Shown here in pieces: positions 4,989 through 17,442 of a stretch of 64,000 nucleotides of DNA. Source of the stretch: Bryobacterales bacterium (GTDB lineage Bacteria > Acidobacteriota > Terriglobia > Bryobacterales > Bryobacteraceae); the NCBI GenBank assembly GCA_019261985.1, contig JAFAQY010000112.1, positions 1 through 64,000 on the forward strand. Direction: 5' to 3'. Below the pieces are notes generated by a model that did no database searches, was not told where the DNA came from, and saw only the letters and a program-made list of their open reading frames with translations. Position 1 is the first letter of the stretch. Every line of letters starts with the position of its first letter. The position numbers were made by a program, and so were the translations under genes.

Positions 4989-5789
4989 CTATTGCGACAG
5001 CGAACAGTCCGGGATGACGCGCATGAACCGGCAGATGGCGGACAGAGTAGCTGCGCACTGGTCCCGATGCGGCGCATGACCGCAGTTATCCAGGATCATG
5101 GCCTCCGCCGCGGGGATTTTGCGCTGAATCGCCGCGACCTGCTCGGCGCTTCCATATTCATCGCGCACACCTTGCAGCACGAGGACGGGACAGCGGATAT
5201 GGTCCAACGACGATTCGATATTCCAGTTGCGAAAAGCCGGATCAAGCCAGACATCGTTCCAACCCCAGAACAACGAATGCACTTTTGCGTGATAGCGGGC
5301 TAATCGCTGGGGCAGGTCCGTTTGATTATAGGCTTCTCGGGCTTGAGCGATGCTCGCTATGGTCATATCTTCGACGAATACGTGGGGCGCTTCGAGAATG
5401 ATTCCGGCCGGCGAATCGGGGAAAGTCCCGGAGTAGATGATGGCGATGGATGCGCCATCGCTTTGCCCCAGAAGGACCGGCCGATTTATGTTTGCCTGCC
5501 TCAAGATCTCGGGAAGCACGATTTGCGCCTCGCGATGCATGTAGGATACCGGACGAGGCTCTGTCAGCTCATCCGAGCCGCCGTGCCCATAGCGCGAGAA
5601 AACGAATACTTCCGCCCCAGTCGCCTCAGCCAGCAAGCAAGGGAAATCCTTCCAGTGAGCAACCGATCCAAGTCCCTCATGCAGCAGAACGAGCGCCGGA
5701 AGATGAGCTTCACGCGGCTCAATTCTGGCCGCCTCCAGCCAGTGGCCGTCAACGAAATAGCGCTCTGCGAATGCGCGGATAGAGATCAA
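4989..5789 (-). CDS. Alpha/beta hydrolase of the box island
   Basis: The product is an alpha/beta-fold hydrolase of about 266 residues. It has an oxyanion region LLHEGLGSVAHW, the nucleophile elbow GQSDGAS and a C-terminal catalytic histidine in NCGHAPH. The frame is open far upstream but would run over the regulator gene. I place the start at the TTG at 5789, whose TG overlaps the TGA stop of the regulator (TTGA), a typical coupling arrangement, with GGCGGTGG upstream. It is the last gene of a tannase-boxR-hydrolase run. Hydrolases of this type next to benzoyl-CoA genes may act on lactone or thioester side products; the substrate here is inference. Confidence 0.8.
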   Translation of the reverse strand: MISIRAFAERYFVDGHWLEAARIEPREAHLPALVLLHEGLGSVAHWKDFPCLLAEATGAEVFVFSRYGHGGSDELTEPRPVSYMHREAQIVLPEILRQANINRPVLLGQSDGASIAIIYSGTFPDSPAGIILEAPHVFVEDMTIASIAQAREAYNQTDLPQRLARYHAKVHSLFWGWNDVWLDPAFRNWNIESSLDHIRCPVLVLQGVRDEYGSAEQVAAIQRKIPAAEAMILDNCGHAPHRDQCAATLSAICRFMRVIPDCSLSQ

Positions 5790-6739
5790 TGAGAAACCAC
5801 CGCCAGCGACTCGCGCACCGGAGTCTCGCGTAACGCCTGGATCAGCATTTCGAGGCTTTCTTCGAGACTCCTGGTTGCGGTATTCAATTGAAGGTCGGCT
5901 TTGCTGTACAGTACTTCGCGTTCGCCGAGAATTCGTTTCAAGTCCGACATCGCGTCGCGATTGTTGGCCATTGGGCGCATATCGCCTTGGGCGATTACGC
6001 GTTGCATGTGCTCTTCCGGAGAGGCGCGAAGCCATACAGTGAAGCACGTGGACAGCAGCCGTTCGAAAGTGCCCGGCTCGGAAACAAGACTGCCTCCGGT
6101 AGCGAGCACAAAGCAGGGGCGCCGTTGGAGGACATCCTCCAGGCACTGCCGCTCCAACTGGCGGAAGCCGGCTTGTCCGTGGAAATCGAAGATCAGGTCC
6201 AATGTGAGTCCACTGGTTTGTTCGATAAGACGGTCGAGCTCCAGGAAGGGCATCTCCAGACGTTCCGCAAGAGCGGCGCCCAAAGTAGACTTGCCGGCCC
6301 CGCGAAGTCCGATTAACGCGATCCGCCGGTGCCGGGCCGCCGGATCGACCCCGCCGAACTGGTACAACAACATCTGGCGTGCCAGTTTCAGGTCATCGAT
6401 GGAAAGGCGGCGAAGAAACTCAACGGTGTGGACAAATTCGACCGGCGGCTCCGAGCCTTCCAGAAGCAGCGCGTCGATGGATACGTTTAGCGCTTTCGCC
6501 AGTAGCCGCAGCACAAGGACGGAAATGTTGCCCTTTCCACCTTCGATTTGCGCGAGATAGCGCTCGGACACGCCGGAATCACGGGCGAGTTGTTTCCGTG
6601 TCATCCCGCGGCGCGCTCTTGCCTGCCGGACGCGATCGCCGAGCAATTTCAGCGGGTCGGGGGCGGTGGACTTGGTCTGAACGGCGCGTTTACCAGACCT
6701 GTTGGGATTCCGCGCGGTTCGCGCAGCGGCCTTCTTCAT
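5786..6739 (-). CDS. boxR: BoxR/BzdR-type transcriptional regulator (HTH plus shikimate-kinase-like domain)
   Basis: The 317-residue protein has an XRE-type helix-turn-helix at residues 31-92 (RKQLARDSGVSERYLAQIE). A linker leads to a shikimate-kinase-like domain from about residue 137, with a Walker A loop GLRGAGKST at 144-152. This fusion is the hallmark of BzdR/BoxR, repressors of benzoate catabolism whose C-terminal domain senses benzoyl-CoA. That function is known for the family and inferred here from the fold and from the flanking boxB and boxC genes. It lies 72 bases downstream of the tannase gene and overlaps the hydrolase start, so these three are probably cotranscribed. Likely DNA targets are the palindromes at 8461, 16109 and 16149. 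A basic N-terminal extension of about 28 residues precedes the HTH. Confidence 0.9.
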   Translation of the reverse strand: MKKAAARTARNPNRSGKRAVQTKSTAPDPLKLLGDRVRQARARRGMTRKQLARDSGVSERYLAQIEGGKGNISVLVLRLLAKALNVSIDALLLEGSEPPVEFVHTVEFLRRLSIDDLKLARQMLLYQFGGVDPAARHRRIALIGLRGAGKSTLGAALAERLEMPFLELDRLIEQTSGLTLDLIFDFHGQAGFRQLERQCLEDVLQRRPCFVLATGGSLVSEPGTFERLLSTCFTVWLRASPEEHMQRVIAQGDMRPMANNRDAMSDLKRILGEREVLYSKADLQLNTATRSLEESLEMLIQALRETPVRESLAVVSH

Positions 6740-6811
6740 GTTTCTAAAAGGATACGACGCGGCTCCATCCTCGCCGTAAACGCCTGGCCGGACGATTTTG
6801 GGATGTGGTGT

Positions 6812-8422
6812 TTAGAAGCCCGTGCTACACGCGAAATTCGCCGCATCGTCCGTGCTTCCGCTGCCTTTGTACTTCGCCACCAGCGGGTATTGGCACAAGG
6901 GGCGCGACCGCGTGATTGCGCCGGCTTGATCGCGGCGCGCCGCCGTCAACGTCTCGGGCGCTTTACCATCCTCAACCCACGCGCGGAGTGCATCAAGCTG
7001 CCCATAGGGCGATGGACCCGCTCCCCCGCCGCAATGGCCGACGCCAGGTGCCAGGAACAAGCGCGCGAACTCGGACGTCTTTTTGGCGCCGCCCATTTTT
7101 TCCTGAACTCGCGTGTAGTAGTCGATGGTCCCCTCCGGCGTGATGAGCTGATCGGCCCAGCCATGCCAAATGATCGCCTTGCCGCCGCGATCCCGAAAAG
7201 CTGTCAGATCGGGGTTATCGGTGCCGATGACCACCCCGTATTCCTCGATGGATTGATCGTAATAACGTTCGTACGCGGCGGGTGTTATCGCCGCCGCATC
7301 CAACTGAGGGTTTTGCGAAAGAAAATAGCGGAACCAGTCCATTGAAATTCCGAATGCCTGCGGCTTTAAAGGTGTGCCGCGGCTGCCCCATAGCGCGCTC
7401 AGGTCCGCTCCGCGAGCCATTCCGTACCACAGAAAGCTTCCATCCTCCCGGCGCGGCCCCTCCCAAAACTTTCGAATGAGATTTACGTCGGCTTCGGTGA
7501 AAGCTCCACAATCTCCAGCGGACGTGCCGATAAGCGGCTTCGGATCGTAGTTGCAGCGCTTCGGGTCTTCGATGACGCCATCCTTGACGCCATCCATTGC
7601 GTCGCACGCGGCGATTGCAGCCGCTGTGGCCGCCGCCAGCTTGCACGCGGGAATCGGATTACCGGCGGCATTCATGGCAACGGAGCCCCATAGCTCTTGC
7701 GGAATGAATTTCGCCCAATTGATTGCGGGTGCTCCGGAAACGACGCCGTTGTAGTCCTGCGGATAACGCTGCACCTCCATCAAGCCTTGCCGGCCGCCTG
7801 TGGAGCATCCGTTAAAGTAGGAATATTTCGGCGCGACGCCGTACATCGCTTGCGTCAGCGCCTTGCCCGTCACGGTCATCTCATGAATTCCAACGTGAGC
7901 GTTATCGCGGATTAGCTGCCAGTTCAGCCGGCCGTTGGCATCCAACGCGAAGCTGCCGTTGCCGCCTTCGTGTCCGGTGTCCGTCGATCCGGCCGCATAA
8001 CCGAGCGCGGCGCCGGCATTGGGGCCTTGCTGACTGCCGCCTGAAAATCCGCCGCCGCCATTTCCTAGAAAGCGGCCGTTCCAGTTAGATGCCGGTATCG
8101 CGAGCCAAATCCTGACTTTGTCGCCCGCGGGCGGGTGCGTCGTGACAGCCGTCACGCGGCAGATGCCCGGATTGGTTGAATCTATGGCGGCCGATTCAAT
8201 GGTCGTGTTCGGCAGCGAGACCATTGCGAGGCTCTCGCAAGAGCGGACAGGCTTGGCATTGGCAATGGCCGGTTTGGGAATCACCCCTAATGTGGGTTGC
8301 GCCGCGCCTCGGCCAGCCGCCGCTGGAGGCGCGCCCTGCGCGGGGCCACGGCCGCCTCCCTGGATTTGAGCATTGGCAAACGCGCTAGTGAGCGTCACGA
8401 GGAGCAGTATCCGGTGGGTCAT
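6812..8422 (-). CDS. Tannase / feruloyl esterase family protein, secreted
   Basis: The 536-residue protein has a clear signal peptide (residues 1-18, ending NAQ) followed by a Gly/Pro/Ala-rich linker. The nucleophile sits in FNGCSTGGRQG. The catalytic aspartate lies in HGWADQLITP and the histidine in PGVGHCGGG. The cysteines beside the serine and histidine reproduce the CS-D-HC disulfide arrangement of the tannase/feruloyl-esterase family (PF07519). Enzymes of this family cleave esters of gallic, ferulic or related aromatic acids. It is divergent from boxC and shares a putative BoxR operator with it. This suggests that it feeds aromatic acids into the ligase and box enzymes; the exact ester is not readable. 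Confidence 0.9.
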   Translation of the reverse strand: MTHRILLLVTLTSAFANAQIQGGGRGPAQGAPPAAAGRGAAQPTLGVIPKPAIANAKPVRSCESLAMVSLPNTTIESAAIDSTNPGICRVTAVTTHPPAGDKVRIWLAIPASNWNGRFLGNGGGGFSGGSQQGPNAGAALGYAAGSTDTGHEGGNGSFALDANGRLNWQLIRDNAHVGIHEMTVTGKALTQAMYGVAPKYSYFNGCSTGGRQGLMEVQRYPQDYNGVVSGAPAINWAKFIPQELWGSVAMNAAGNPIPACKLAAATAAAIAACDAMDGVKDGVIEDPKRCNYDPKPLIGTSAGDCGAFTEADVNLIRKFWEGPRREDGSFLWYGMARGADLSALWGSRGTPLKPQAFGISMDWFRYFLSQNPQLDAAAITPAAYERYYDQSIEEYGVVIGTDNPDLTAFRDRGGKAIIWHGWADQLITPEGTIDYYTRVQEKMGGAKKTSEFARLFLAPGVGHCGGGAGPSPYGQLDALRAWVEDGKAPETLTAARRDQAGAITRSRPLCQYPLVAKYKGSGSTDDAANFACSTGF

Positions 8423-8430
8423 GATCTTTC

Positions 8431-8459
8431 TTCTGTATCATCTCCAGAGACCGGCGTCA
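8431..8459 (-). promoter_or_regulatory. Promoter of the tannase-boxR-hydrolase operon
   Basis: On the minus strand TTGACG (8459-8454) and TACAGA (8436-8431) are 17 bases apart with an extended TGN. The -35 box starts one base from the palindrome at 8461-8472, so a bound regulator would interfere with polymerase. Confidence 0.5.
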
Positions 8460-8460
8460 A

Positions 8461-8472
8461 GCAGTATAGTGC
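8461..8472. promoter_or_regulatory. Putative BoxR operator in the tannase/boxC divergent region
   Basis: GCAGTATAGTGC differs by one base from the perfect palindrome found twice in front of the benzoate-CoA ligase. With its flanks it contains TGCA, the core I recall from BzdR operators. AGTGCATT recurs at 8468-8475 and 8500-8507. It lies 38 bases before the tannase start and 46 before boxC. Confidence 0.65.
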
Positions 8473-8483
8473 ATTCGAGTCGT

Positions 8484-8512
8484 TGACTTCACGCATTGAA
8501 GTGCATTATCGT
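8484..8512 (+). promoter_or_regulatory. Candidate promoter of the boxCB operon
   Basis: TTGACT at 8484-8489 and TATCGT at 8507-8512 have a 17-base spacer. Transcription would begin close to the boxC ATG at 8519, which fits the absence of a ribosome binding site there. Confidence 0.4.
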
Positions 8513-8518
8513 TTGATC

Positions 8519-10204
8519 ATGGAAGCCGTAGCGCAGCAGCCGAGTTCTGTCGCAAACTTCGTCGATTTTCAGACTGAACCTTCGCTGTACCGCCATTGGA
8601 AGCTGTCAATCGCTCCGGCTATACAAGGCGGTGGCCGTGTTGCCAGGCTTATCATGGATGTCCAGGAAGACGGCGGAATTCGTCCCGGCTACAAGCTCAA
8701 GCTGAATTCGTACGATCTGGGCGTGGACATCGAACTGCACGATGCACTTCAACGGATTCGATTCGAGCATCCCGCAGTCGCCAGCGTGGTGATCGCAAGC
8801 GCCAAGCCGCGGATATTCTGCTCTGGCGCGAATATCTACATGCTGGGACTTTCCAGTCACGCATGGAAGGTGAACTTCTGCAAATTCACCAATGAGACTC
8901 GCAACGGAATGGAGGATTCCAGCGCCCATTCGGGGCTGAAGTTCATTGCCGCGTGTAACGGGTCCACCGCGGGCGGCGGCTATGAGCTGGCGCTGGCCTG
9001 CGACGAAATCGTTTTGATCGACGACCGGTCTTCTACGGTAAGTCTCCCCGAGGCGCCGCTGCTTGGCGTGCTCCCTGGAACGGGCGGATTGACTCGCTTG
9101 ACGGATAAGAGGCGGGTACGCCGGGATTTGGCGGACGTATTCAGCACGATGCCGGAAGGTATTCAGGGCGAACGCGCCAAGGCGTGGGGACTGGTGGACG
9201 CCGTAGTCAAACCGCAAGACTTCGACGCCTACGTGATGAGCCGGGCGCTGGCTCTAGCGGAAGCGAGCGACCGTCCGCGCGATGCGCAGGGCGTTGAGCT
9301 TACACCGCTCGAGCGCACCATCGACGAGCGCGGATACCACTACCGGCATGTGGACGTGATGCTGGAGCCGCAGCGGCGCACGGCAACGTTCTCGATCAAG
9401 GCGCCGGAATCGCGGGGACCTGCATCGCTCCAGGAAATTCTCACGGCCGGAGCGAAATGGTGGCCCTTGCAAATGGCGCGCGAACTGGATGATGCAATCT
9501 TGTCGCTGCGCGTGAATCACCTCGACCTGGGTCTGTGGGTTTTCAAGACCGAAGGCGATCCGGCCAACATTCTCGGTATCGATTCGACGCTGGTTTCACA
9601 CCGCGATCACTGGTTTGTGCGCGAAGTCATCGGGATGATGCGCCGGACTTTCGCGCGCGTGGACGTGACTTCAAGATCGATCTACGCCATCGTCGAGCCG
9701 GGATCTTGTTTCGCGGGTTCTCTTTTTGAACTGGCGTTGGCCGCGGATCGCGTCTACATGCTGGATGATTCGAAGTCTTCCGTCGCGCTATCGGAGATGA
9801 ATTTCGGTGGATTGGAAGCGGTCAATGGCCGCACGCGGCTGGCCGGCCGGTTCTATGGCGATGCATCGCGAATCGATGCGGTCCGCCGGCGCGCTGGAGC
9901 TGCGCTTGGGCCTGGCGAGGCATCCGAGCTAGGGCTAGTGACGTTCACACCGGACGAGCTGGATTGGAGCGATGAGATCAGGCTTGCCGTCGAGAGCCGG
10001 CTAGCGCTCTCGCCCGATGCCATGACGGGCCTCGAAGCGAATCTCCGGTTTGGCGGCGGCGAAACCATGGAGTCGCGCATATTCGGGCGCCTGTCCGCTT
10101 GGCAAAACTGGATCTTCATCCGGCCGAACGCGGTGGGGCCCGCGGGAGCTCTTAAAGTTTACGGCACGGGCAATCGCCCCAAGTTCGATTGGGAACGGGT
10201 ATAG
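8519..10204 (+). CDS. boxC: 2,3-epoxybenzoyl-CoA dihydrolase (BoxC)
   Basis: BoxC opens and hydrolyses the non-aromatic ring of 2,3-epoxybenzoyl-CoA, giving 3,4-dehydroadipyl-CoA semialdehyde and formate. The protein is of crotonase type with two related halves, seen in SGANIYMLG and GSTAGGGYELALA of the first half and in EPGSCFAGSLFELALAADR of the second. The stretch RPGYKLKLNSYDLGVDIELH is characteristic of BoxC. The frame is open from 8297, but that extension would overlap the tannase start and resembles nothing. The ATG at 8519 gives 561 residues, matching the family length, with the conserved VDFQT(D/E)PS segment at the N-terminus. No Shine-Dalgarno sequence is visible. The boxB ATG follows two bases after the stop. 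Confidence 0.93.
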   Translation: MEAVAQQPSSVANFVDFQTEPSLYRHWKLSIAPAIQGGGRVARLIMDVQEDGGIRPGYKLKLNSYDLGVDIELHDALQRIRFEHPAVASVVIASAKPRIFCSGANIYMLGLSSHAWKVNFCKFTNETRNGMEDSSAHSGLKFIAACNGSTAGGGYELALACDEIVLIDDRSSTVSLPEAPLLGVLPGTGGLTRLTDKRRVRRDLADVFSTMPEGIQGERAKAWGLVDAVVKPQDFDAYVMSRALALAEASDRPRDAQGVELTPLERTIDERGYHYRHVDVMLEPQRRTATFSIKAPESRGPASLQEILTAGAKWWPLQMARELDDAILSLRVNHLDLGLWVFKTEGDPANILGIDSTLVSHRDHWFVREVIGMMRRTFARVDVTSRSIYAIVEPGSCFAGSLFELALAADRVYMLDDSKSSVALSEMNFGGLEAVNGRTRLAGRFYGDASRIDAVRRRAGAALGPGEASELGLVTFTPDELDWSDEIRLAVESRLALSPDAMTGLEANLRFGGGETMESRIFGRLSAWQNWIFIRPNAVGPAGALKVYGTGNRPKFDWERV

Positions 10205-10206
10205 AC

Positions 10207-11658
10207 ATGGCAAACACCGCGGAAGTAACGCAGCAGGCAATCGACTACACTCAGCGCATCCCTAATAATGTCGATCTTGCCAATGACCGGGCCTTGCAGC
10301 GCGCGCTGGAACGGTGGCAGCCCGCGTTCTTGAGCTGGTGGGGCGAAACCGGTCCGGAGAATACCGCCAATCTGGAGGTGTATCTCAGAACGGCTGTCAG
10401 CGTCGATCGCGACGGATGGGCGAACTTTGGCTACGTGCGCATGCCGGAGTACAGATGGGGCATATTCCTGACGCCGCGCGACGAGGGCCGCAACATTCAT
10501 TTCGGCGATCAGAGGGGTCAACCTGCCTGGCAGGATGTGCCCGGCGAATACCGGTCGCCGCTGCGCCGCATCATTGTGACGCAAGGAGACACCGAGCCGG
10601 CATCGGTAGAACAACAGAGATTGCTAGGCGCGACGTGCCCTTCGCTATACGATTTACGAAATCTCTTCCAAGTGAACGTCGAAGAAGGACGGCATCTGTG
10701 GGCCATGGTGTACCTCCTGCACCGGTACTTCGGCCGCGACGGGCGAGAGGAAGCCGAGGCCTTATTGCAGAGGCGGTCGGGGGATGCGAATAACCCGCGT
10801 ATTCTAACTGCCTTCAACGAGAAGACCAGCCACTGGCTCGCCTATTACATGTTCACGTTCTTTACCGACCGCGATGGCAAGTTCCAGTTGGCCGCTCTGG
10901 CGGAATCGGCCTTCGATCCTCTGGCCCGCACCACCAGGTTCATGCTGACGGAGGAAGCCCATCACATGTTTATTGGCGAATCCGGCGTGGCGCGCATTCT
11001 GCAGCGCACGTGCGAAGCGATGAGCCAGAACAAATTTACCGATCCGGCGCAGGTCCGGGCTCAAGGCGTGATCGATTTCGATACGCTGCAAAAATTCGTG
11101 AATTTCCATTACAGCGCCACGCTTGATCTTTTTGGCTCCGAGATCTCCTCCAATGCGGCAAGCTACTACACCGGAGGACTGAAGGGCCGCTTCAGCGAAG
11201 CCAACTTGAAGGACAATCATTCGCTAACGGAAGATTTCTACGCGGTCCAGGAGGTCGCCGGCGGCGAGATCGTCGCCAGGCAAGTCCCGGCATTGACAGC
11301 TCTCAACGCCCGCCTGCGGGACGATTTCACCCGCGAGATTCAGGCCGGCCTCGATCGATGGAATCGAATCCCGGAGAAATTTGGAATACCCATCCGGTTG
11401 AAGCTTCCGCATGCCGGCTTTCATCGCAAGATAGGAAGCTTTGCGGGTCACTACATCACTCCGGACGGTCGCGTTATTTCCAAGGAAGATTGGGAGCGGC
11501 AGTCGCCCGCCTGGCTTCCCACCGACCAGGACCACGCATTCGTGAATTCCCTTATGGGACGAGTCATCGAGCCGGGTCAATTCGCCAACTGGATTGCTCC
11601 GCCCGCGCGCGGCATCAATAATCTGCCGATCGAGTTCGAGTATGTCCGTTTCAATTAG
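10207..11658 (+). CDS. boxB: Benzoyl-CoA 2,3-epoxidase oxygenase subunit (BoxB)
   Basis: BoxB is the di-iron oxygenase that epoxidises benzoyl-CoA, taking electrons from the reductase BoxA. The 483-residue product carries two candidate iron-ligand motifs: EEGRH at residues 159-163 and EEAHH at 249-253. Family-typical stretches include NLEVYLRTAVSVDRDGWANF and MPEYRWGIFLTPRDEGRN. The start at 10207 follows boxC by two bases, with a GGGAACGGG purine stretch upstream; a six-codon longer in-frame start at 10189 would overlap boxC. The gene overlaps the next small ORF by 17 bases. No boxA is present in the window, so the reductase must be encoded elsewhere or replaced. Confidence 0.94.
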   Translation: MANTAEVTQQAIDYTQRIPNNVDLANDRALQRALERWQPAFLSWWGETGPENTANLEVYLRTAVSVDRDGWANFGYVRMPEYRWGIFLTPRDEGRNIHFGDQRGQPAWQDVPGEYRSPLRRIIVTQGDTEPASVEQQRLLGATCPSLYDLRNLFQVNVEEGRHLWAMVYLLHRYFGRDGREEAEALLQRRSGDANNPRILTAFNEKTSHWLAYYMFTFFTDRDGKFQLAALAESAFDPLARTTRFMLTEEAHHMFIGESGVARILQRTCEAMSQNKFTDPAQVRAQGVIDFDTLQKFVNFHYSATLDLFGSEISSNAASYYTGGLKGRFSEANLKDNHSLTEDFYAVQEVAGGEIVARQVPALTALNARLRDDFTREIQAGLDRWNRIPEKFGIPIRLKLPHAGFHRKIGSFAGHYITPDGRVISKEDWERQSPAWLPTDQDHAFVNSLMGRVIEPGQFANWIAPPARGINNLPIEFEYVRFN

Positions 11659-11914
11659 CGGTCTCGCCGCGCCCGCGCGGAAATTATTCGACATCATCGT
11701 TAATGAGGCCTATCATGGTCCGCTCCGTCCGAAAGCCGAAGGTGTGGCGACGCCGCCCGAAATTCTGGAGGCGTGCGGGCTGGATGTGGGCGAGTTCTAC
11801 GATTTGCTGCGTAGTTTGCAAGACGCCGGCCTGATTCGCGTATCAAACGCATATCCTTTCGAAGAAATCACGCTCACGCCCGAGGCGGAGGAAGCGGCAC
11901 GTGCCCGCTCATGA
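11642..11914 (+). CDS. Small unknown protein, winged-helix-like, in the box operon
   Basis: This 90-residue ORF begins at an ATG inside the end of boxB and ends 14 bases inside the MaoC gene, so it is embedded in a tightly overlapping operon. The segment PPEILEACGLDVGEFYDLLR and the following LQDAGLIRVSN resemble a helix-turn-helix with a wing (ITLTPEAEEAA). I do not recognise a named family. A longer in-frame start at 11594 would overlap boxB much more and reads as arginine/serine-rich shadow sequence. It could be a small regulator or an accessory protein of the epoxidase; both are guesses from position. Confidence 0.7.
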   Translation: MSVSISGLAAPARKLFDIIVNEAYHGPLRPKAEGVATPPEILEACGLDVGEFYDLLRSLQDAGLIRVSNAYPFEEITLTPEAEEAARARS

Positions 11915-12401
11915 TTTCGCGGTAGCGGCTGACCAGCGGTATTTCGAAGATTATGTGCCCGGTCGCGTTTATGAATTCGGAACGATCTCGGTAACCGAAC
12001 AGGAGATCATCGAATTCGCGCAGAAATTCGACCCTCAATACTTTCACGTAGATCCGGAGCGGGCCAAGAGCGGCCGGTTTGGCGGGATCGTCGCCTCGGG
12101 ATGGCACACCGTGAGCCTCACGATGCGGCTCTACGTCGATCACTATCTTTCGCATGTGGCGAGCCTGGCGTCGCCGGGCGTCGATGAAGTTCGCTGGCCG
12201 AATCCCGTGCGGCCGGGCGACACGCTGCGGATTCGAGTGGAAATTCTGGAATCGCGCCCGTCGCGTTCCAAGCCGGATCGTGGAGTAGTCCGCGCGAGGA
12301 TCGAAGCTCTGAATCAACGCGACGAACTGGCGCTAAGCATGATCGGCATTAGCATCATCGGCCGCCGCCCGCAGAGTCGAGGCCTTGGCGTCGAAAGCTG
12401 A
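11901..12401 (+). CDS. MaoC-like hot-dog hydratase
   Basis: The 166-residue protein has the R-hydratase/MaoC pattern: YFEDYVPGRVYEFG at the N-terminus, the catalytic region FDPQYFHVDPERA with FGGIVASGWHT, and VRWPNPVRPGDTLRI. Such enzymes hydrate enoyl-CoA thioesters. In this operon it could hydrate an unsaturated dicarboxylyl-CoA formed after ring opening; that step is inferred. The start is a GTG at 11901 with GGAGGAAG about 8 bases upstream, overlapping the preceding gene by 14 bases. Its 3' end overlaps the converging FadJ-like gene by 69 bases, so one of the two C-termini may be unusually long. Confidence 0.88.
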   Translation: MPAHDFAVAADQRYFEDYVPGRVYEFGTISVTEQEIIEFAQKFDPQYFHVDPERAKSGRFGGIVASGWHTVSLTMRLYVDHYLSHVASLASPGVDEVRWPNPVRPGDTLRIRVEILESRPSRSKPDRGVVRARIEALNQRDELALSMIGISIIGRRPQSRGLGVES

Positions 12402-14462
12402 GAAGGAACTCCTCGATTTAGCAAGGTGGGTTAGAAGCGGAGCGGGTTTCCAACCGAACTCCAGTACCCGCTGATGCACCGTATCTAGTGCGGCCTCATC
12501 GGCATAATGCATCGGCCCGCCGCGGTACGCCGGGAATCCATACCCGTTGATATACACGAGATCGATATCCGAGGCGCGCCGCGCGCATCCGTCCTCCAAA
12601 ATGCGCGCGCCCTCATTCACGAGCGCGTAGACGGCGCGCTCGACAATTTCTTCGTTCGAAATCGGCCGGCGCGTCGCGCCAGCTTCGCTCGCGGCGGTCT
12701 CAATGAGCGCATCCACCTTCGGATCCGGCAGCGCGTTGCGTTTTTCATCGTAGGCGTACCATCCGGCGCCTGTCTTTTGCCCGAACCGGCCCAACGCGTA
12801 CAGCATTTCCATCACCCGCGGTTGGCGCAGTTCAGGCGGCTCCATTGCAGAAAACACGTGCCGGCTGCTCATGGCAATATCGATCCCGGCCAAATCCTGC
12901 GCGGCGAACGGCCCCATGGCCATTCCCCATTCCTCGAGCGCTCGATCCACCTGCTGTGGCGATGCACCCTCTTCCAGCAGCAACTGAGCTTCTCGGCGGT
13001 AAACGCGAAGCATGCGATTCCCAATAAAGCCGGGGCAGTTTCCGGCCACGATGGCAATTTTGCCCAGCCGCTTGGCGAGAGCAAGCGCCGCGGCCGTAAC
13101 ACGCGCCGAAGTTGCCTTCCCCGGCGCGACCTCGAGTAATCGCATCACGTTTGCGGGACTAAAGAAGTGTAGGCCGATAACAGATTCGGCGAGCGGACAC
13201 GCTTGAGCGATGTCGTCGATATTCAGATAAGACGTATTAGTGGCAAGAATTGCGCCGGGCTTGGCGACGCCGGCCAATTCCGAGAACAATACCCTCTTGA
13301 CTTCGAGATTTTCGAAGGCTGCCTCGACGATAATGTCCGCGGCTTCGAAGCCCGCGTAATCAAGCTGCGGCTGAATCTTAGAAAACCGGGTCCGCATCTC
13401 GGCGTCCGCAATTCGCCCCTTTCGCACAGAGCTTTCGTAAGATGCCTCAATCGCTTTTATCGCGGACGCCAGCGCTTCCGGGTAGGCTTCCTTCAGCCGC
13501 ACTGGAATTCCGGCATCTGCGAAGCACATCGCAATGCCGCGGCCCATGGTCCCGGCGCCGACAACAGCGGCGGCCTGGATCTCACCATGGGCAGAGCTTG
13601 CGGCCGGTATCTTGCGGGCCGCGCGCTCCGCGAAGAAGACGTGAATCAGGGCCTTCGCCTGGCTAGAAACAAGCATCCGATGGAAGATTTCGCGTTCCTT
13701 CCGGCAGCCCTCTTCAAACCTCGACTGTGTAGCCGCTTCAATAGCATCGATGGCGGCAAGCGGCGCAAGCAGCTTCTTCCGTGTCTTCGGCACTCTTTCC
13801 CGGTACCCGGCAAATAGGGCGGCGTTGGATTCCGGATTGCCGAAGTTCACAGCAAGCTCGCGCGTGCGTCGAGGGGCAACGCCGCTCAGCTCCCGCGCGA
13901 CCTCCATAGCGTGGCCGAGAAGATTTTCTTCAACGACCCGGTCCACGATTCCAAAACGCTGTGCGTCCTCGGCGCGCACGGGCTCGCCGAAGGCGCACAT
14001 CTCGAGAGCCGCTTCAAGGCCGGCCAAACGCGGCAAGCGCTGCGTGCCACCGGCCCCAGGGATGATTCCGAGTTTGACTTCCGGCTGTCCGATTCTGGCG
14101 TCAGCGGTGGCAATGCGATAGTGGGCTGCAAGCGCGACCTCAAGCCCGCCCCCAAAGGCATTCCCATGAATGGCGGCCACCACCGGTTTTGGAGCGGACT
14201 CAACGTCGAACAGGATGCGCGGCAGAATGGAGGGCACAGCACCCTCGTTCGCCATCCGCTGCAAATCCTTGATGTCCGCGCCCGCAATGAACGTATTTCC
14301 GGAGCCTGTTAGAACGATGGCATCGATCTTAGAATCGTCGATCGCTCGCGCCAACGCCTGCTGAAAGCTCTCTTGCACCCTGGCGCTGAGAGCGTTCACG
14401 GGCGGGTTCTCAATCGTGAGAATCGCGATGCGATCTTCAATACGATATTGAACCTGTTCCAT
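12333..14462 (-). CDS. Bifunctional enoyl-CoA hydratase / 3-hydroxyacyl-CoA dehydrogenase (FadJ/FadB-like)
   Basis: The 709-residue protein begins with an enoyl-CoA hydratase/isomerase domain (residues 1-190) containing GADIKDL and GNAFGGGLE near residue 100, with likely acid/base glutamates at 108 and 128. A linker leads to a Rossmann domain with VGAGTMGRG at 301-309. Two 3-hydroxyacyl-CoA dehydrogenase C-terminal domains follow ([16 protein letters not shown], then [15 protein letters not shown]). It would take 3,4-dehydroadipyl-CoA-type intermediates through isomerisation or hydration and oxidation towards 3-oxoadipyl-CoA, a role known for such genes in benzoate clusters. It lies 56 bases downstream of the ligase gene on the same strand, so it probably shares the ligase promoter and its putative operators. 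Confidence 0.93.
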
Positions 14463-14518
14463 GGCTAAGCGCCCGGGTGGTGCAGAGCGTCGCGGATCTC
14501 CTTAATTTGTTGCGCACG

Positions 14519-16105
14519 TCACGTCATCGAGGCTTGTGATACTTTTGCGCTCCCTCCCAATTCGCGGAGCTTGTATCGCAACACTTTTCCGGCGGCTGTC
14601 TTAGGAAGCTCCGGAACAAATTCGATGTGCCGGGGATATTTGTAGGGCGTGATCCGTTGCTTGACAAAGTCCTGAAGCTCCCTGGCTAACCCTGGGCGGC
14701 CCAAACAGCCATCGCGCAGGACAATGAATGCCTTTGGAGTGTGCAGCCCGGTCTCTTCTTCGAAGGCGATTACCGCGGCTTCAAGAACCTGGGAGTGTTC
14801 AATCAGCGCGCTCTCGACTTCGATCGGGGAGACCCATTGGCCGGAGACACGAAACATGTCGTCCGACCTGCCGGCGTACCAGTAGTAGCCGTTTTCATCG
14901 ATCCGGTACTTGTCTCCCGTGAAGAACCACCGTCCCCGCATGCGGTCCTGGCTCAATTCCTGGCGGTTCCAGTAGCACTGAGCGGTGCTCGGTCCCGCAA
15001 CCATCAAATCACCGATTTCACCCAGCGGCACTGATTGGCCGGCGTGATCGACAAGCGCAAGTTCGTAGCCGGGGACCGCCTGGCCGGTGCTGCCTGGATG
15101 AACTCGTCCTGCCCGCGCGGAAAGGTAGATGTGCAACACCTCGGTCGATCCGATGCCGTCCAGAATCTCGACTCCGAAGCGCTCTTTCCACCTCCGGAAG
15201 ATTTCCGCGGGCAAAGGCTCCGCGGCGGAAGCAGCCAGACGGATAGACCCGAGGTCGTAGCGTGTCTTCTCGGCCTCTTGTAGCATCGACGCGTAAAGTG
15301 TCGGCACCGAAAAAAACAGCGTCGAACGATTTGCCTCCGCGGTTTCCAGTATCGCCCTCGCGTGCGGCTTGCCCGGGTACAGGATCGTGGTGGCGCCTAC
15401 ATGGAATGGAAACATGAGCGCGTTGCCCAGGCCGTAAGCGTGGAAGAGCTTGGACGAGGAAAAGACCACATCGCCCGCGCGGATGTCCAGTACACCCCGA
15501 GCATAGTGTTCGCAGCAGTGAACCCAATGATGGTGCAGATGAACAGCGGCTTTGGGGCGACCCGTGCTGCCGGATGTCCAGAGCCAGAACGCGACATCAT
15601 CCTTGGTTGTGCGCGCCGGCTCGAGGTCTGGTGAGGAGTGCCGGAGGACCTCGTCCCAATTCAGGTAATCATGTACGGGCTCGCCACAGACGATCACGTG
15701 CTTTAGGTAGCGCTGACCGGAAAACGCCGGGGCCAGTTCTGCGATGAGCGCCGAGTGCACGATCGCAATTCTGGCGCGGCTCTCCGACAGGAAGTAAGCG
15801 TAATCGCTGGCTCGCATTGCGGTGCTAGTCGGGACGGCAACGCCGCCCATCTTGATCGTGCCGAAATATGCAGCCGCAAACTCCGGAATGTCTGGGAGGA
15901 CTAAAAGCACTCGCTGTTCTTCTTGAAGTCCCAACCCAAGCAAGGCATTGCCGACACGGTTGACCTGCGTTGCCACCTCACAGTACGTAACCCGAGTGCT
16001 TCCGCAAACGATTGCAGTCTTTTCGCCTCGACCTTCTCGAATATGCCGGTCGACGAAGTGATCGACGAGGTTATATCGGTCCGGGAGTTCCAGGGGCTGC
16101 ACCAT
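14519..16105 (-). CDS. bclA: Benzoate-CoA ligase family protein
   Basis: The 528-residue protein activates an aromatic acid with ATP and CoA, the entry step of the island. The ANL-family P-loop TSGSTGRPK lies at residues 177-185, preceded by VAFWLW. The motif FTGDKYRIDENGYYWYAGR is the conserved hinge region. The catalytic lysine is in PKTAAGKVLRYKLREL at the C-terminus. The histidine-rich stretch after the P-loop is typical of benzoate-CoA ligases. The frame is open to 16453, but residues before MVQPLELPDRYN are low-complexity shadow and cover two palindromes, so I place the start at 16105. No ribosome binding site is seen. Whether benzoate or a hydroxylated acid is preferred is not decidable here. 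Confidence 0.9.
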   Translation of the reverse strand: MVQPLELPDRYNLVDHFVDRHIREGRGEKTAIVCGSTRVTYCEVATQVNRVGNALLGLGLQEEQRVLLVLPDIPEFAAAYFGTIKMGGVAVPTSTAMRASDYAYFLSESRARIAIVHSALIAELAPAFSGQRYLKHVIVCGEPVHDYLNWDEVLRHSSPDLEPARTTKDDVAFWLWTSGSTGRPKAAVHLHHHWVHCCEHYARGVLDIRAGDVVFSSSKLFHAYGLGNALMFPFHVGATTILYPGKPHARAILETAEANRSTLFFSVPTLYASMLQEAEKTRYDLGSIRLAASAAEPLPAEIFRRWKERFGVEILDGIGSTEVLHIYLSARAGRVHPGSTGQAVPGYELALVDHAGQSVPLGEIGDLMVAGPSTAQCYWNRQELSQDRMRGRWFFTGDKYRIDENGYYWYAGRSDDMFRVSGQWVSPIEVESALIEHSQVLEAAVIAFEEETGLHTPKAFIVLRDGCLGRPGLARELQDFVKQRITPYKYPRHIEFVPELPKTAAGKVLRYKLRELGGSAKVSQASMT

Positions 16106-16108
16106 GAA

Positions 16109-16120
16109 GCAGTATACTGC
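16109..16120. promoter_or_regulatory. Putative BoxR operator, proximal to the ligase gene
   Basis: GCAGTATACTGC is a perfect 12-base palindrome lying three bases upstream of the ligase ATG. On the minus strand it contains TATACT, a possible -10 box, so bound regulator would cover the start of transcription. Confidence 0.7.
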
Positions 16121-16148
16121 AAAGCCGAGCGTTTCCAGAACGCGATGT

Positions 16149-16160
16149 GCAGTATACTGC
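16149..16160. promoter_or_regulatory. Putative BoxR operator, distal to the ligase gene
   Basis: This is a second identical copy of GCAGTATACTGC, 40 bases from the first (about four helical turns), which would allow cooperative binding on one face of the DNA. Confidence 0.7.
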
Positions 16161-16338
16161 TCGCGTATTTTGCTCGGCGGCGCGGCGATTATCGCGATCA
16201 CAGAACGGCGCGCGCCAGCTGTATTCGGAGAGTTCGTATCCCGGTGAGCCGCGTGCTGGACGACGGCGCCAGCCGTCCCCCGATTCTCTCTTATTACCTG
16301 AGCGGGCGCCAGCAGGCGGCCGCGCTTTCGGCGTTGAT

Positions 16339-17442
16339 CTATTGAAGATGAGCGAGTGAATAGCTCGTGCTGCGTCCGCCGCCGGGATTCTGAACGAGCA
16401 CACGATGCTGGATGAGGTCCTGAATGTCCCGGTGGGCGGTATCCTGCGAGCACTTGGCAAGAATTGCGTACTTCGAGGTCGTGAGCTTGCCTTCAAATCC
16501 GTCGAGTAAACGATTGATCACGAGCCACTGACGGTCGTTGAGCTTCACGTCCGTGATGCGGTCCCAGAAACGCGCTTTCTCAAGTACGGCGCTTAAGGTT
16601 TCCTGTGCCCCATCGATTGCGCGGCCCAGGCAGGCGAGGAACCATTCCATCCATGAAGTCACATCCACGCTTGCTTTTTGCGTGCGTTCCAAGATGTCGT
16701 AATAGTCGTTACGCTCCTGGCGGATTTGCGCCGACATGCTGTAGAACCGCTGCGGGCTATGCTCTGAGCGCGCGAGAGCGAGGTCTGCAATCGCGCGCGC
16801 GATGCGTCCGTTCCCGTCGTCGAACGGGTGTATAGTGACGAACCACAGATGGGCGAGTCCGGCGTTAAGGACCTGGTCATTCGATTTGTCGCCCTCGAAC
16901 CAGTCGAGGAATGATTTCATGTCGCGATCAAGCCGATCCGCCTTCGGAGCTTCGTAATGGACGCGTTCTTTCCCGATCGGACCGGAAACGACCTGCATGG
17001 GTCCCGTGCTGTCATCGCGCCAAGCGCCCACTTTGATCGCGGTCATGCCGCTTCGGCCGGTGGGGAAGAGGGACGCATGCCAGGCGAACAATCGTTCAGC
17101 CGTAAGCGGCTGGTTATAGTGGCGGGTCGCATCGAGCATCATTTCCACGATGCCTTCGACATGTCGATCCGTGGGTTTAAGCGCGCCAATGTCCATGCCG
17201 AGCCGGCGCGCGATCGACGAGCGGACTTGGTCCGCATCGAGCATTTCACCTTCGATTTCGCTGCTTTTGAGAACGTCCGCCGTAAGGGTTTTGAGCACCG
17301 CTTCCTGCTGAAGGTTGAAACCTAAAGCCTCCATGTGCCCGATGAGGCGGCCTTGCCGGTGGCGGACGGAGGCGAGCGGCTCAGCGATTGTTTCCGCGCT
17401 CCAGTGGAACATGGGCCAATCTTTGAGCTCATGAATATACAT
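16339..17442 (-). CDS. Fic family AMP-transferase with N-terminal inhibitory helix
   Basis: The 367-residue protein carries the Fic active-site motif HPFDDGNGRIAR at residues 205-216. Its N-terminal region (residues 1-85) resembles the DUF4172 domain often fused to Fic. It contains S60-SEI-E64-G65, matching the [S/T]xxxE[G/N] inhibitory helix of class II Fic proteins, so the enzyme is probably self-inhibited. The C-terminus (about 295-367) looks like a winged-helix DNA-binding domain (GKLTTSKYAILAKCSQDTAH), as in other Fic regulators. Fic proteins transfer AMP to hydroxyl side chains; the target is unknown. The array of CTCCGCA sites directly upstream suggests autoregulation. It is separate from the box genes. 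Confidence 0.92.
   Translation of the reverse strand: MYIHELKDWPMFHWSAETIAEPLASVRHRQGRLIGHMEALGFNLQQEAVLKTLTADVLKSSEIEGEMLDADQVRSSIARRLGMDIGALKPTDRHVEGIVEMMLDATRHYNQPLTAERLFAWHASLFPTGRSGMTAIKVGAWRDDSTGPMQVVSGPIGKERVHYEAPKADRLDRDMKSFLDWFEGDKSNDQVLNAGLAHLWFVTIHPFDDGNGRIARAIADLALARSEHSPQRFYSMSAQIRQERNDYYDILERTQKASVDVTSWMEWFLACLGRAIDGAQETLSAVLEKARFWDRITDVKLNDRQWLVINRLLDGFEGKLTTSKYAILAKCSQDTAHRDIQDLIQHRVLVQNPGGGRSTSYSLAHLQ

What the first reader, a model, noticed from the sequence alone, without database searches (positions are those of the whole stretch)
8461..16160. Three near-identical palindromes mark a candidate BoxR regulon
GCAGTATAGTGC (8461) lies in the tannase/boxC divergent region, and GCAGTATACTGC occurs twice (16109 and 16149, exactly 40 bases apart) in front of the benzoate-CoA ligase. 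I found no other copy in the window. The sites sit only at promoters of the aromatic genes beside a boxR gene, and one abuts the tannase -35 box. This predicts that one benzoyl-CoA-sensing repressor controls both strands of the island. In acidobacteria this operator is, to my knowledge, undescribed.
Basis: partly seen in the sequence, partly recalled or inferred. Interest (0 to 1): 0.8.

Follow-up and report, generated by a model that had tools for sequence, protein, structure and literature searches.

The report
BoxR operator sites in an acidobacterium
Three short DNA palindromes in a soil bacterium's benzoate-degradation genes look like the switch sites of the known repressor BoxR, which extends a control system described in proteobacteria to another phylum.

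Summary
GCAGTATAGTGC (8461) and two GCAGTATACTGC (16109, 16149) are the only exact GCAGTATASTGC sites in the 6.49 Mb genome, in a boxR-boxC-boxB-ligase island confirmed by profile.

TGCANTATANTGCA (up to 2 mismatches) lies by the boxR or boxC start in 29 of 30 boxR+ loci of the phylum, and nowhere in 20 box loci without boxR. It follows boxR in 7 of 7 independent pairs. A matrix built without the window ranks the three sites 1st to 3rd of its positions: 20.2, 19.3, 19.3 against 10.0 for the next.

Additions: a weak fourth half-site probably overlaps the boxC -10 box. The ligase pair is absent in two close relatives. In L111 and L112 boxR faces boxC directly; here a tannase lies between. BoxR binding and benzoyl-CoA response are inferred. 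Real; new member of a known kind.

The parts
8460..8473 (+). operator O1 of the tannase/boxC divergent region, AGCAGTATAGTGCA (1 mismatch to TGCANTATANTGCA)
   Evidence: top-scoring window position with a matrix made from other genomes (20.18)
8502..8515 (+). probable degenerate operator O2 (TGCATTATCGTTTG; left half intact, 4 mismatches), 42 bp from O1, overlapping the boxC -10 box; the alternative register 8492-8505 (CGCATTGAAGTGCA) is 32 bp from O1
   Evidence: the same place holds a site with 2-3 mismatches in L111, L112 and L117, 41-43 bp from O1; low scores here, 5.44 and 7.57; inferred
8483..8512 (+). boxC promoter TTGACT-18-TATCGT; the -10 box ends 6 bp before the ATG at 8519 (leaderless transcript predicted)
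   Evidence: TTGACT at the same place in L111, L112, L117
16108..16121 (-). operator O2 of the ligase promoter, TGCAGTATACTGCT on the minus strand; contains TATACT, a possible -10, ending 5 bp before the ATG at 16105
   Evidence: score 19.29
16148..16161 (-). operator O1 of the ligase promoter, AGCAGTATACTGCA on the minus strand, 40 bp upstream of O2
   Evidence: score 19.29; with O2 the only match of the exact pair pattern in the genome
5786..6739 (-). boxR: XRE helix-turn-helix plus shikimate-kinase-like domain, 317 aa
   Evidence: NF006015 380.8 bits; HTH_3 and SKI
6812..8422 (-). tannase/feruloyl esterase family gene; N-terminus looks like a signal peptide (by eye, no predictor run)
   Evidence: PF07519 355.6 bits; best solved relatives are named carboxylic ester hydrolase, feruloyl esterase B and MHETase
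4989..5786 (-). alpha/beta hydrolase downstream of boxR
   Evidence: also downstream of boxR in L111 and L117
8519..10204 (+). boxC
   Evidence: TIGR03222 885.6 bits
10207..11658 (+). boxB
   Evidence: TIGR03225 839.1 bits
11901..12401 (+). MaoC-type dehydratase
   Evidence: PF01575 81.5 bits
12333..14462 (-). enoyl-CoA hydratase/3-hydroxyacyl-CoA dehydrogenase, downstream of the ligase
   Evidence: ECH_1, 3HCDH_N, 3HCDH; below the FadJ and FadB cut-offs
14519..16105 (-). benzoate-CoA ligase
   Evidence: TIGR02262 603.5 bits

Best explanation
The palindromes are operators for the BoxR repressor encoded in the same island. BoxR dimers bind GCA-N-TATA-N-TGC (TGCA-N6-TGCA with frayed ends) in pairs about 4 helical turns apart, one site just upstream of the -35 region and one over the -10 box, and block transcription of boxCB-maoC and of the ligase-dehydrogenase operon. 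When the ligase makes benzoyl-CoA, BoxR lets go and both strands are induced. Shown here: the sites, their uniqueness in the genome, their tie to boxR across genomes, and the conserved promoter layout upstream of boxC. Inferred from studied relatives: binding by BoxR, repression, and benzoyl-CoA as inducer. Further inference: the site at 8461 also controls the tannase-boxR-hydrolase strand, which would make boxR self-regulating.
For: Exact motif only at these three places in 6.49 Mb. The BoxR/BzdR operator in Betaproteobacteria is TGCA-N6-TGCA, consensus ATGCACTATAGTGCAT, sites multiple and mainly 3-5 turns apart; BoxR and BzdR recognise benzoyl-CoA (passages of PMC6449761, PMC6678401, PMC4424350). 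TGCANTATANTGCA at 0/1/2 mismatches: 9/22/27 hits in 31 boxR+ loci (475,648 bp, window's first 20 kb included), 0/0/0 in 20 boxR- box loci (293,220 bp); reversed control 0/0/3 and 0/0/0. Window left out, 29 of 30 boxR+ loci have a site by the boxR or boxC start: 50 sites near and 5 elsewhere, against 5.75 (sd 2.5, 20 Markov replicates) expected in all; 18 of 21 spacings are 31-34 or 43-44 bp. Operator presence follows boxR in 7 of 7 independent pairs on a BoxB tree, p = 0.016. The matrix from other genomes puts the window sites 1st to 3rd. O1, 9-11 bp, TTGACT, 17-18 bp, -10 inside O2: window, L111, L112, L117. 29 of 31 boxR+ genomes hold boxB over cut-off. A betaproteobacterial box cluster (L145) has sites with 1 and 2 mismatches just upstream of boxR and boxC.
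Against: No binding or expression data. G564 (BoxR 82% identical) and G651 have no site within 3 mismatches in the 800 bp before their 80%-identical ligase, so that pair is not conserved there; of four proteobacterial loci with a ligase match, L115 and L116 have sites before it, L113 and L114 none. L061, the second-best BoxR by profile score, has no site within 2 mismatches. The fourth site is weak. No consensus promoter is found for ligase or tannase. Under the pair pattern, two boxR+ genomes (G346, G026) and one boxR- genome (G291) have a match away from box genes, and the reversed control matched 5 times in 4 genomes. 25 of 36 boxR+ genomes, the window's own included, have no exact TGCANTATANTGCA. 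BoxR relative L146 has no site in its stretch. 38 of 67 boxB genomes lack BoxR, so most box clusters of the phylum sample are controlled otherwise.
Confidence: 0.86

Rival explanations
1. Only the boxC site is a working BoxR operator; the ligase pair belongs to another regulator or is a chance feature near the start of the ligase frame.
For: Two close relatives with an 80%-identical ligase lack any site before it. The ligase reading frame stays open through both palindromes. No consensus promoter was found there.
Against: Both sites have the exact 12-bp core and score 19.29 against 9.97 for the best place outside the three, and the pair is the only match of the pair pattern in the genome. Ligases in L115 and L116 (Pseudomonadota) also have sites upstream, and ligase genes belong to the betaproteobacterial BoxR regulon (PMC6449761, passages).
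Confidence: 0.1
2. The palindromes bind a different regulator that happens to travel with box genes, not BoxR.
For: No binding data here; BoxR proteins of the phylum fall into forms that differ in the helix-turn-helix region (SERYLAQIE-like and SVRFLAQLE-like, by eye), yet share the motif.
Against: 20 box loci without boxR carry no site and presence tracks boxR in 7 of 7 independent pairs. The sequence matches the experimentally defined BoxR/BzdR operator.
Confidence: 0.03
3. The sites are relics: box genes and boxR were acquired together from elsewhere and the regulation is no longer used.
For: A BoxR match (E <= 1e-30) is found in only 2 of 257 genomes of the order, own included. In G651 boxR is reduced to a fragment and its boxC sites have 2 and 3 mismatches.
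Against: In the window boxR is intact and the three sites have one mismatch each; the ligase pair, absent in two relatives, looks gained rather than decayed.
Confidence: 0.05

Closest known systems
BoxR/BzdR operators of Azoarcus and other Betaproteobacteria (PMC6449761, PMC6678401; passages read)
   Same: TGCA-N6-TGCA palindrome, TATA core in the consensus, multiple sites mainly 3-5 helical turns apart, overlapping promoter elements, beside box genes, boxR and benzoate-CoA ligase
   Different: Inner letters GTATAC or GTATAG instead of CTATAG (those letters vary among the other sites of the phylum); outer T or A changed on one side of each site; boxR not directly divergent from boxC; a tannase lies between; host is an acidobacterium
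BoxR regulons of Betaproteobacteria (content; PMC6449761, passages)
   Same: boxC, boxB, benzoate-CoA ligase, a COG2267/COG596 hydrolase, COG2030 acyl dehydratase and COG1250 hydroxyacyl-CoA dehydrogenase are reported members; the window has genes of these kinds (my matching by Pfam, COGs not run)
   Different: No boxA over cut-off in this genome; the word tannase does not occur in that paper's main text

Membership tests
BoxR/BzdR operator | two TGCA half-sites, inverted, 6 nt apart | tested here: met
   each of the three sites has one full TGCA and one with its outermost base changed; in the other 50 sites of the phylum the outer base is T in 54 of 100 counts
BoxR/BzdR operator | multiple sites a few helical turns apart | tested here: met
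   ligase pair 40 bp apart; at boxC only if the weak half-site at 8502 or 8492 counts
BoxR/BzdR operator | co-occurrence with boxR across genomes | tested here: met
   29 of 30 boxR+ loci against 0 of 20 boxR- loci; 7 of 7 independent pairs
BoxR/BzdR operator | bound by the repressor and released by benzoyl-CoA | not testable with these tools
   needs gel shift or footprint
BoxR repressor | N-terminal XRE helix-turn-helix and C-terminal shikimate-kinase-like domain | tested here: met
   NF006015 380.8 bits over cut-off 204; HTH_3 and SKI in Pfam
BoxR repressor | gene linked to box genes | tested here: met
   window gene order; 29 of 31 boxR+ genomes hold boxB over cut-off; 27 of 30 fetched boxR+ loci hold a boxC match
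aerobic benzoyl-CoA (box) pathway | BoxA, BoxB, BoxC and benzoate-CoA ligase present | tested here: not met
   BoxB, BoxC and ligase present; no BoxA over cut-off in this genome, which is 98.8% complete

The most novel reading that the evidence does not exclude
In this lineage a secreted tannase/feruloyl-esterase gene has slipped between boxR and boxC and taken over the old divergent boxR promoter, so that a benzoyl-CoA-sensing repressor, through one shared operator, controls extracellular release of aromatic acids, its own synthesis and ring breakdown; the ligase promoter gained its own operator pair independently. BoxR thereby becomes a regulator of plant-polymer ester attack in soil acidobacteria.
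Probability: 0.35. Interest if true: 0.5.

Novelty: new member of a known kind. Interest (0 to 1): 0.38.

Why it matters
It carries the BoxR operator code from Proteobacteria into Acidobacteriota, abundant soil bacteria that are hard to grow (general knowledge), and gives a precise motif and layout by which benzoate regulons can be read from their genomes. The tie between regulator and sites across 50 fetched loci makes the prediction cheap to test. It does not change the known mechanism.

Tried and rejected
Rejected: chance occurrence. Rejected: a new operator kind; passages of PMC6449761 and PMC6678401 describe the same architecture. Rejected: that the change from CTATAG to GTATAC is a specificity change; those two positions hold all four letters among the other sites of the phylum. 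Rejected: that the pair matches away from the box locus in G346, G026 and G291 mark ligase genes; no window protein matches in the 5.6-12 kb fetched around them. The two exact matches away from boxR, in G267 and G075, fall inside reading frames. No further regulon member of this genome was found with the exact pair pattern; the single one-mismatch sites elsewhere were not followed up.

Limits and dropped rows: 20 of the 38 boxB+ boxR- genomes were fetched as negatives. Three of the 30 boxR+ loci (L084, L087, L090) hold no boxC match, so their sites count by boxR alone. In one search the window was set to 'has operator' by hand, L117 and L145 were left out, and two of the 20 negatives (L098, L102) gave only 21 bp upstream of the boxC match, though their whole loci hold no site. 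The BoxB tree held 54 rows because matches under about 300 residues were dropped. The matrix was made from sites preselected at 2 mismatches or fewer, so its fixed columns are partly by construction. Of the 13 loci, L118 (fragment at a contig end) and L119-L123 (helix-turn-helix matches only) were not used in counts; L120 has one site with 1 mismatch and L123 one with 2. L132 and L111 are the same contig (26,740 bp) and count once. Papers: passages only of PMC4424350, PMC6449761, PMC6678401 and PMC10803450; listings only for the rest.
Full report
Observation. The three palindromes are in the sequence at the stated coordinates. In the whole genome (6,487,584 bp) exact GCAGTATASTGC occurs at these three places and nowhere else; matches with one mismatch are no more common than those of the reversed control pattern. 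Profile searches confirm the neighbours: BoxR, tannase (PF07519), BoxC, BoxB, a MaoC-type dehydratase, a hydratase/dehydrogenase and benzoate-CoA ligase.

What the motif is. Extended by one base on each side the sites read AGCAGTATAGTGCA (8460), AGCAGTATACTGCA (16108) and TGCAGTATACTGCT (16148): TGCA-N6-TGCA with one outer base changed in each. [quoted passage not shown] passages of PMC6678401 give TGCA(N6)TGCA for BzdR operators OR2 and OR3 in Azoarcus. The window sites are therefore of a known operator type.

Test across genomes. Of 396 sampled genomes of the phylum, 67 hold boxB over the cut-off and 31 hold BoxR over the cut-off; 29 of these 31 are among the 67 (not G376 and G088), and 38 of the 67 have no BoxR. 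I fetched the boxR loci of the 30 other boxR+ genomes and 20 of the 38 box loci without boxR. TGCANTATANTGCA at 0/1/2 mismatches gave 9/22/27 hits in the 31 boxR+ loci (window included, first 20 kb only; 475,648 bp) and 0/0/0 in the 20 boxR- loci (293,220 bp); the reversed pattern gave 0/0/3 and 0/0/0. Leaving the window out, 29 of 30 boxR+ loci have a site near the boxR or boxC start (50 sites near, 5 elsewhere; 5.75 expected in all from first-order Markov sequence, largest of 20 replicates 11), and 18 of 21 spacings between neighbouring sites are 31-34 or 43-44 bp. The exception is L061. As a positive control from a named betaproteobacterium, the box cluster of Mycetohabitans rhizoxinica (L145) has sites with 1 and 2 mismatches just upstream of boxR and of boxC; a BoxR relative in Methylobacterium bullatum (L146, record without annotation) has none in the stretch.

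Control for relatedness. On a BoxB tree of 54 rows, boxR+ and boxR- loci of the phylum are interspersed. A site within 300 bp upstream of boxC was found in 30 of 31 boxR+ rows (25 of the phylum sample and 6 named loci, four of these proteobacterial) and 0 of 20 boxR- rows, window not counted; two of the 20 had only 21 bp upstream. In 7 of 7 independent pairs on supported branches the site goes with boxR (p = 0.016).

Specificity. In 76 whole genomes (36 with boxR, in one of them only a fragment; 40 without) exact TGCANTATANTGCA occurs at 12 places: 10 beside boxR, 1 elsewhere in a boxR+ genome, 1 in a boxR- genome; reversed control 0. The window's own genome has none, since each of its sites has one changed outer base, and 25 of the 36 boxR+ genomes have none. 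The two places away from boxR fall inside reading frames. A pair pattern (two half-cores 16-34 bp apart) occurs at 15 places: 11 beside boxR, 1 at the window's ligase promoter, 3 elsewhere (G346, G026, G291); reversed control 5. In the window's genome the ligase pair is the only match of that pattern.

Blind scoring. A symmetric matrix built only from the other genomes ranks the three window sites first to third of all window positions: 20.18, 19.29 and 19.29, next 9.97.

Promoter anatomy. Upstream of boxC in the window and in L111, L112 and L117 the order is O1, 9-11 bp, TTGACT, 17-18 bp, then a -10-like TATNNT inside a second, weaker site O2, with O1 and O2 starts 41-43 bp apart. In the window O2 is TGCATTATCGTTTG at 8502 (42 bp from O1), or in another register CGCATTGAAGTGCA at 8492 (32 bp); both score low. 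The consensus scan finds exactly this boxC promoter in 6600-8700 and none for the tannase, and none before the ligase. At the ligase, O2 contains TATACT and its 12-bp core ends 3 bp before the ATG; the layout parallels boxC by eye, but the -35 (TTCTGG) is poor. Both -10 boxes end 5-6 bp before the start codon, so leaderless transcripts are predicted, not shown. A Fic-domain gene lies upstream of the ligase on the same strand and no terminator-like site was found between them, so read-through is possible.

What is particular to this genome. In G564/L111 (BoxR 82% identical) and L112 (73%) boxR faces boxC directly; in L117 a 395-aa reading frame lies between them. The window has the tannase there. 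No tannase match was found in the 30 boxR+ loci, and among the named loci only in L116, next to its ligase. Neither G564 nor G651 has an operator before its 80%-identical ligase; G650 (L112) gave no ligase match at 1e-100. A BoxR match is present in 2 of 257 genomes of the order, own included, and the window's BoxB lies with L111, L112 and L117 on the side of a supported branch that also holds four proteobacterial rows and six of family f48 (root for drawing only). Transfer is a natural reading but was not tested. In G651 boxR is a fragment, no intact copy was found elsewhere in that genome, and its boxC sites have 2 and 3 mismatches: a single case that fits loss of selection.

Verdict. The sites are most likely BoxR operators controlling boxCB and the ligase operon, and possibly the tannase-boxR strand. 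Known mechanism, new phylum; the tannase link is the freshest part and the least supported. No paper on BoxR in Acidobacteriota was found in searches.

Noticed in passing
genome G000 (own): No BoxA (reductase partner of BoxB) over the family cut-off in the whole genome, nor in G564, G650 or G651; another reductase must serve BoxB if the pathway works.
   Followed up: partly
L078, L079, L081, L083 near the boxR start: On the boxR strand the site TGCACTATARTGCA lies in the boxR frame at its beginning (reads MHYSA in L078 and L079, MHYNA in L083, LHYSA in L081), so operator and boxR start overlap or nearly so.
   Followed up: no
L061:10316-10328: The one boxR+ locus without the motif has, just before boxR, a TATA-centred palindrome with GAA/TTC instead of GCA/TGC half-sites (GGAATTATAGTTC); perhaps a changed specificity.
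   Followed up: no
L061-L090: 20 of 30 predicted BoxR frames are 248-288 aa and many run from the helix-turn-helix almost straight into the kinase-like domain, while the window's 317-aa BoxR has a longer linker, as I recall for proteobacterial ones.
   Followed up: partly
L116:15770-16993 (Caulobacterales MAG): A tannase relative (30% identity) lies next to the benzoate-CoA ligase of another box cluster with boxR, so the tannase link may recur.
   Followed up: no
L117:8701-9888 and 10001-10345 (Bryobacterales MAG, G651): boxR reduced to its C-terminal part, with an unrelated 395-aa reading frame between it and boxC.
   Followed up: partly
12333-12401: The convergent MaoC and hydratase/dehydrogenase frames overlap by 69 bp at their 3' ends.
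   Followed up: no
16339-17442: Fic-domain protein (DUF4172 plus Fic) upstream of the ligase promoter on the same strand.
   Followed up: no
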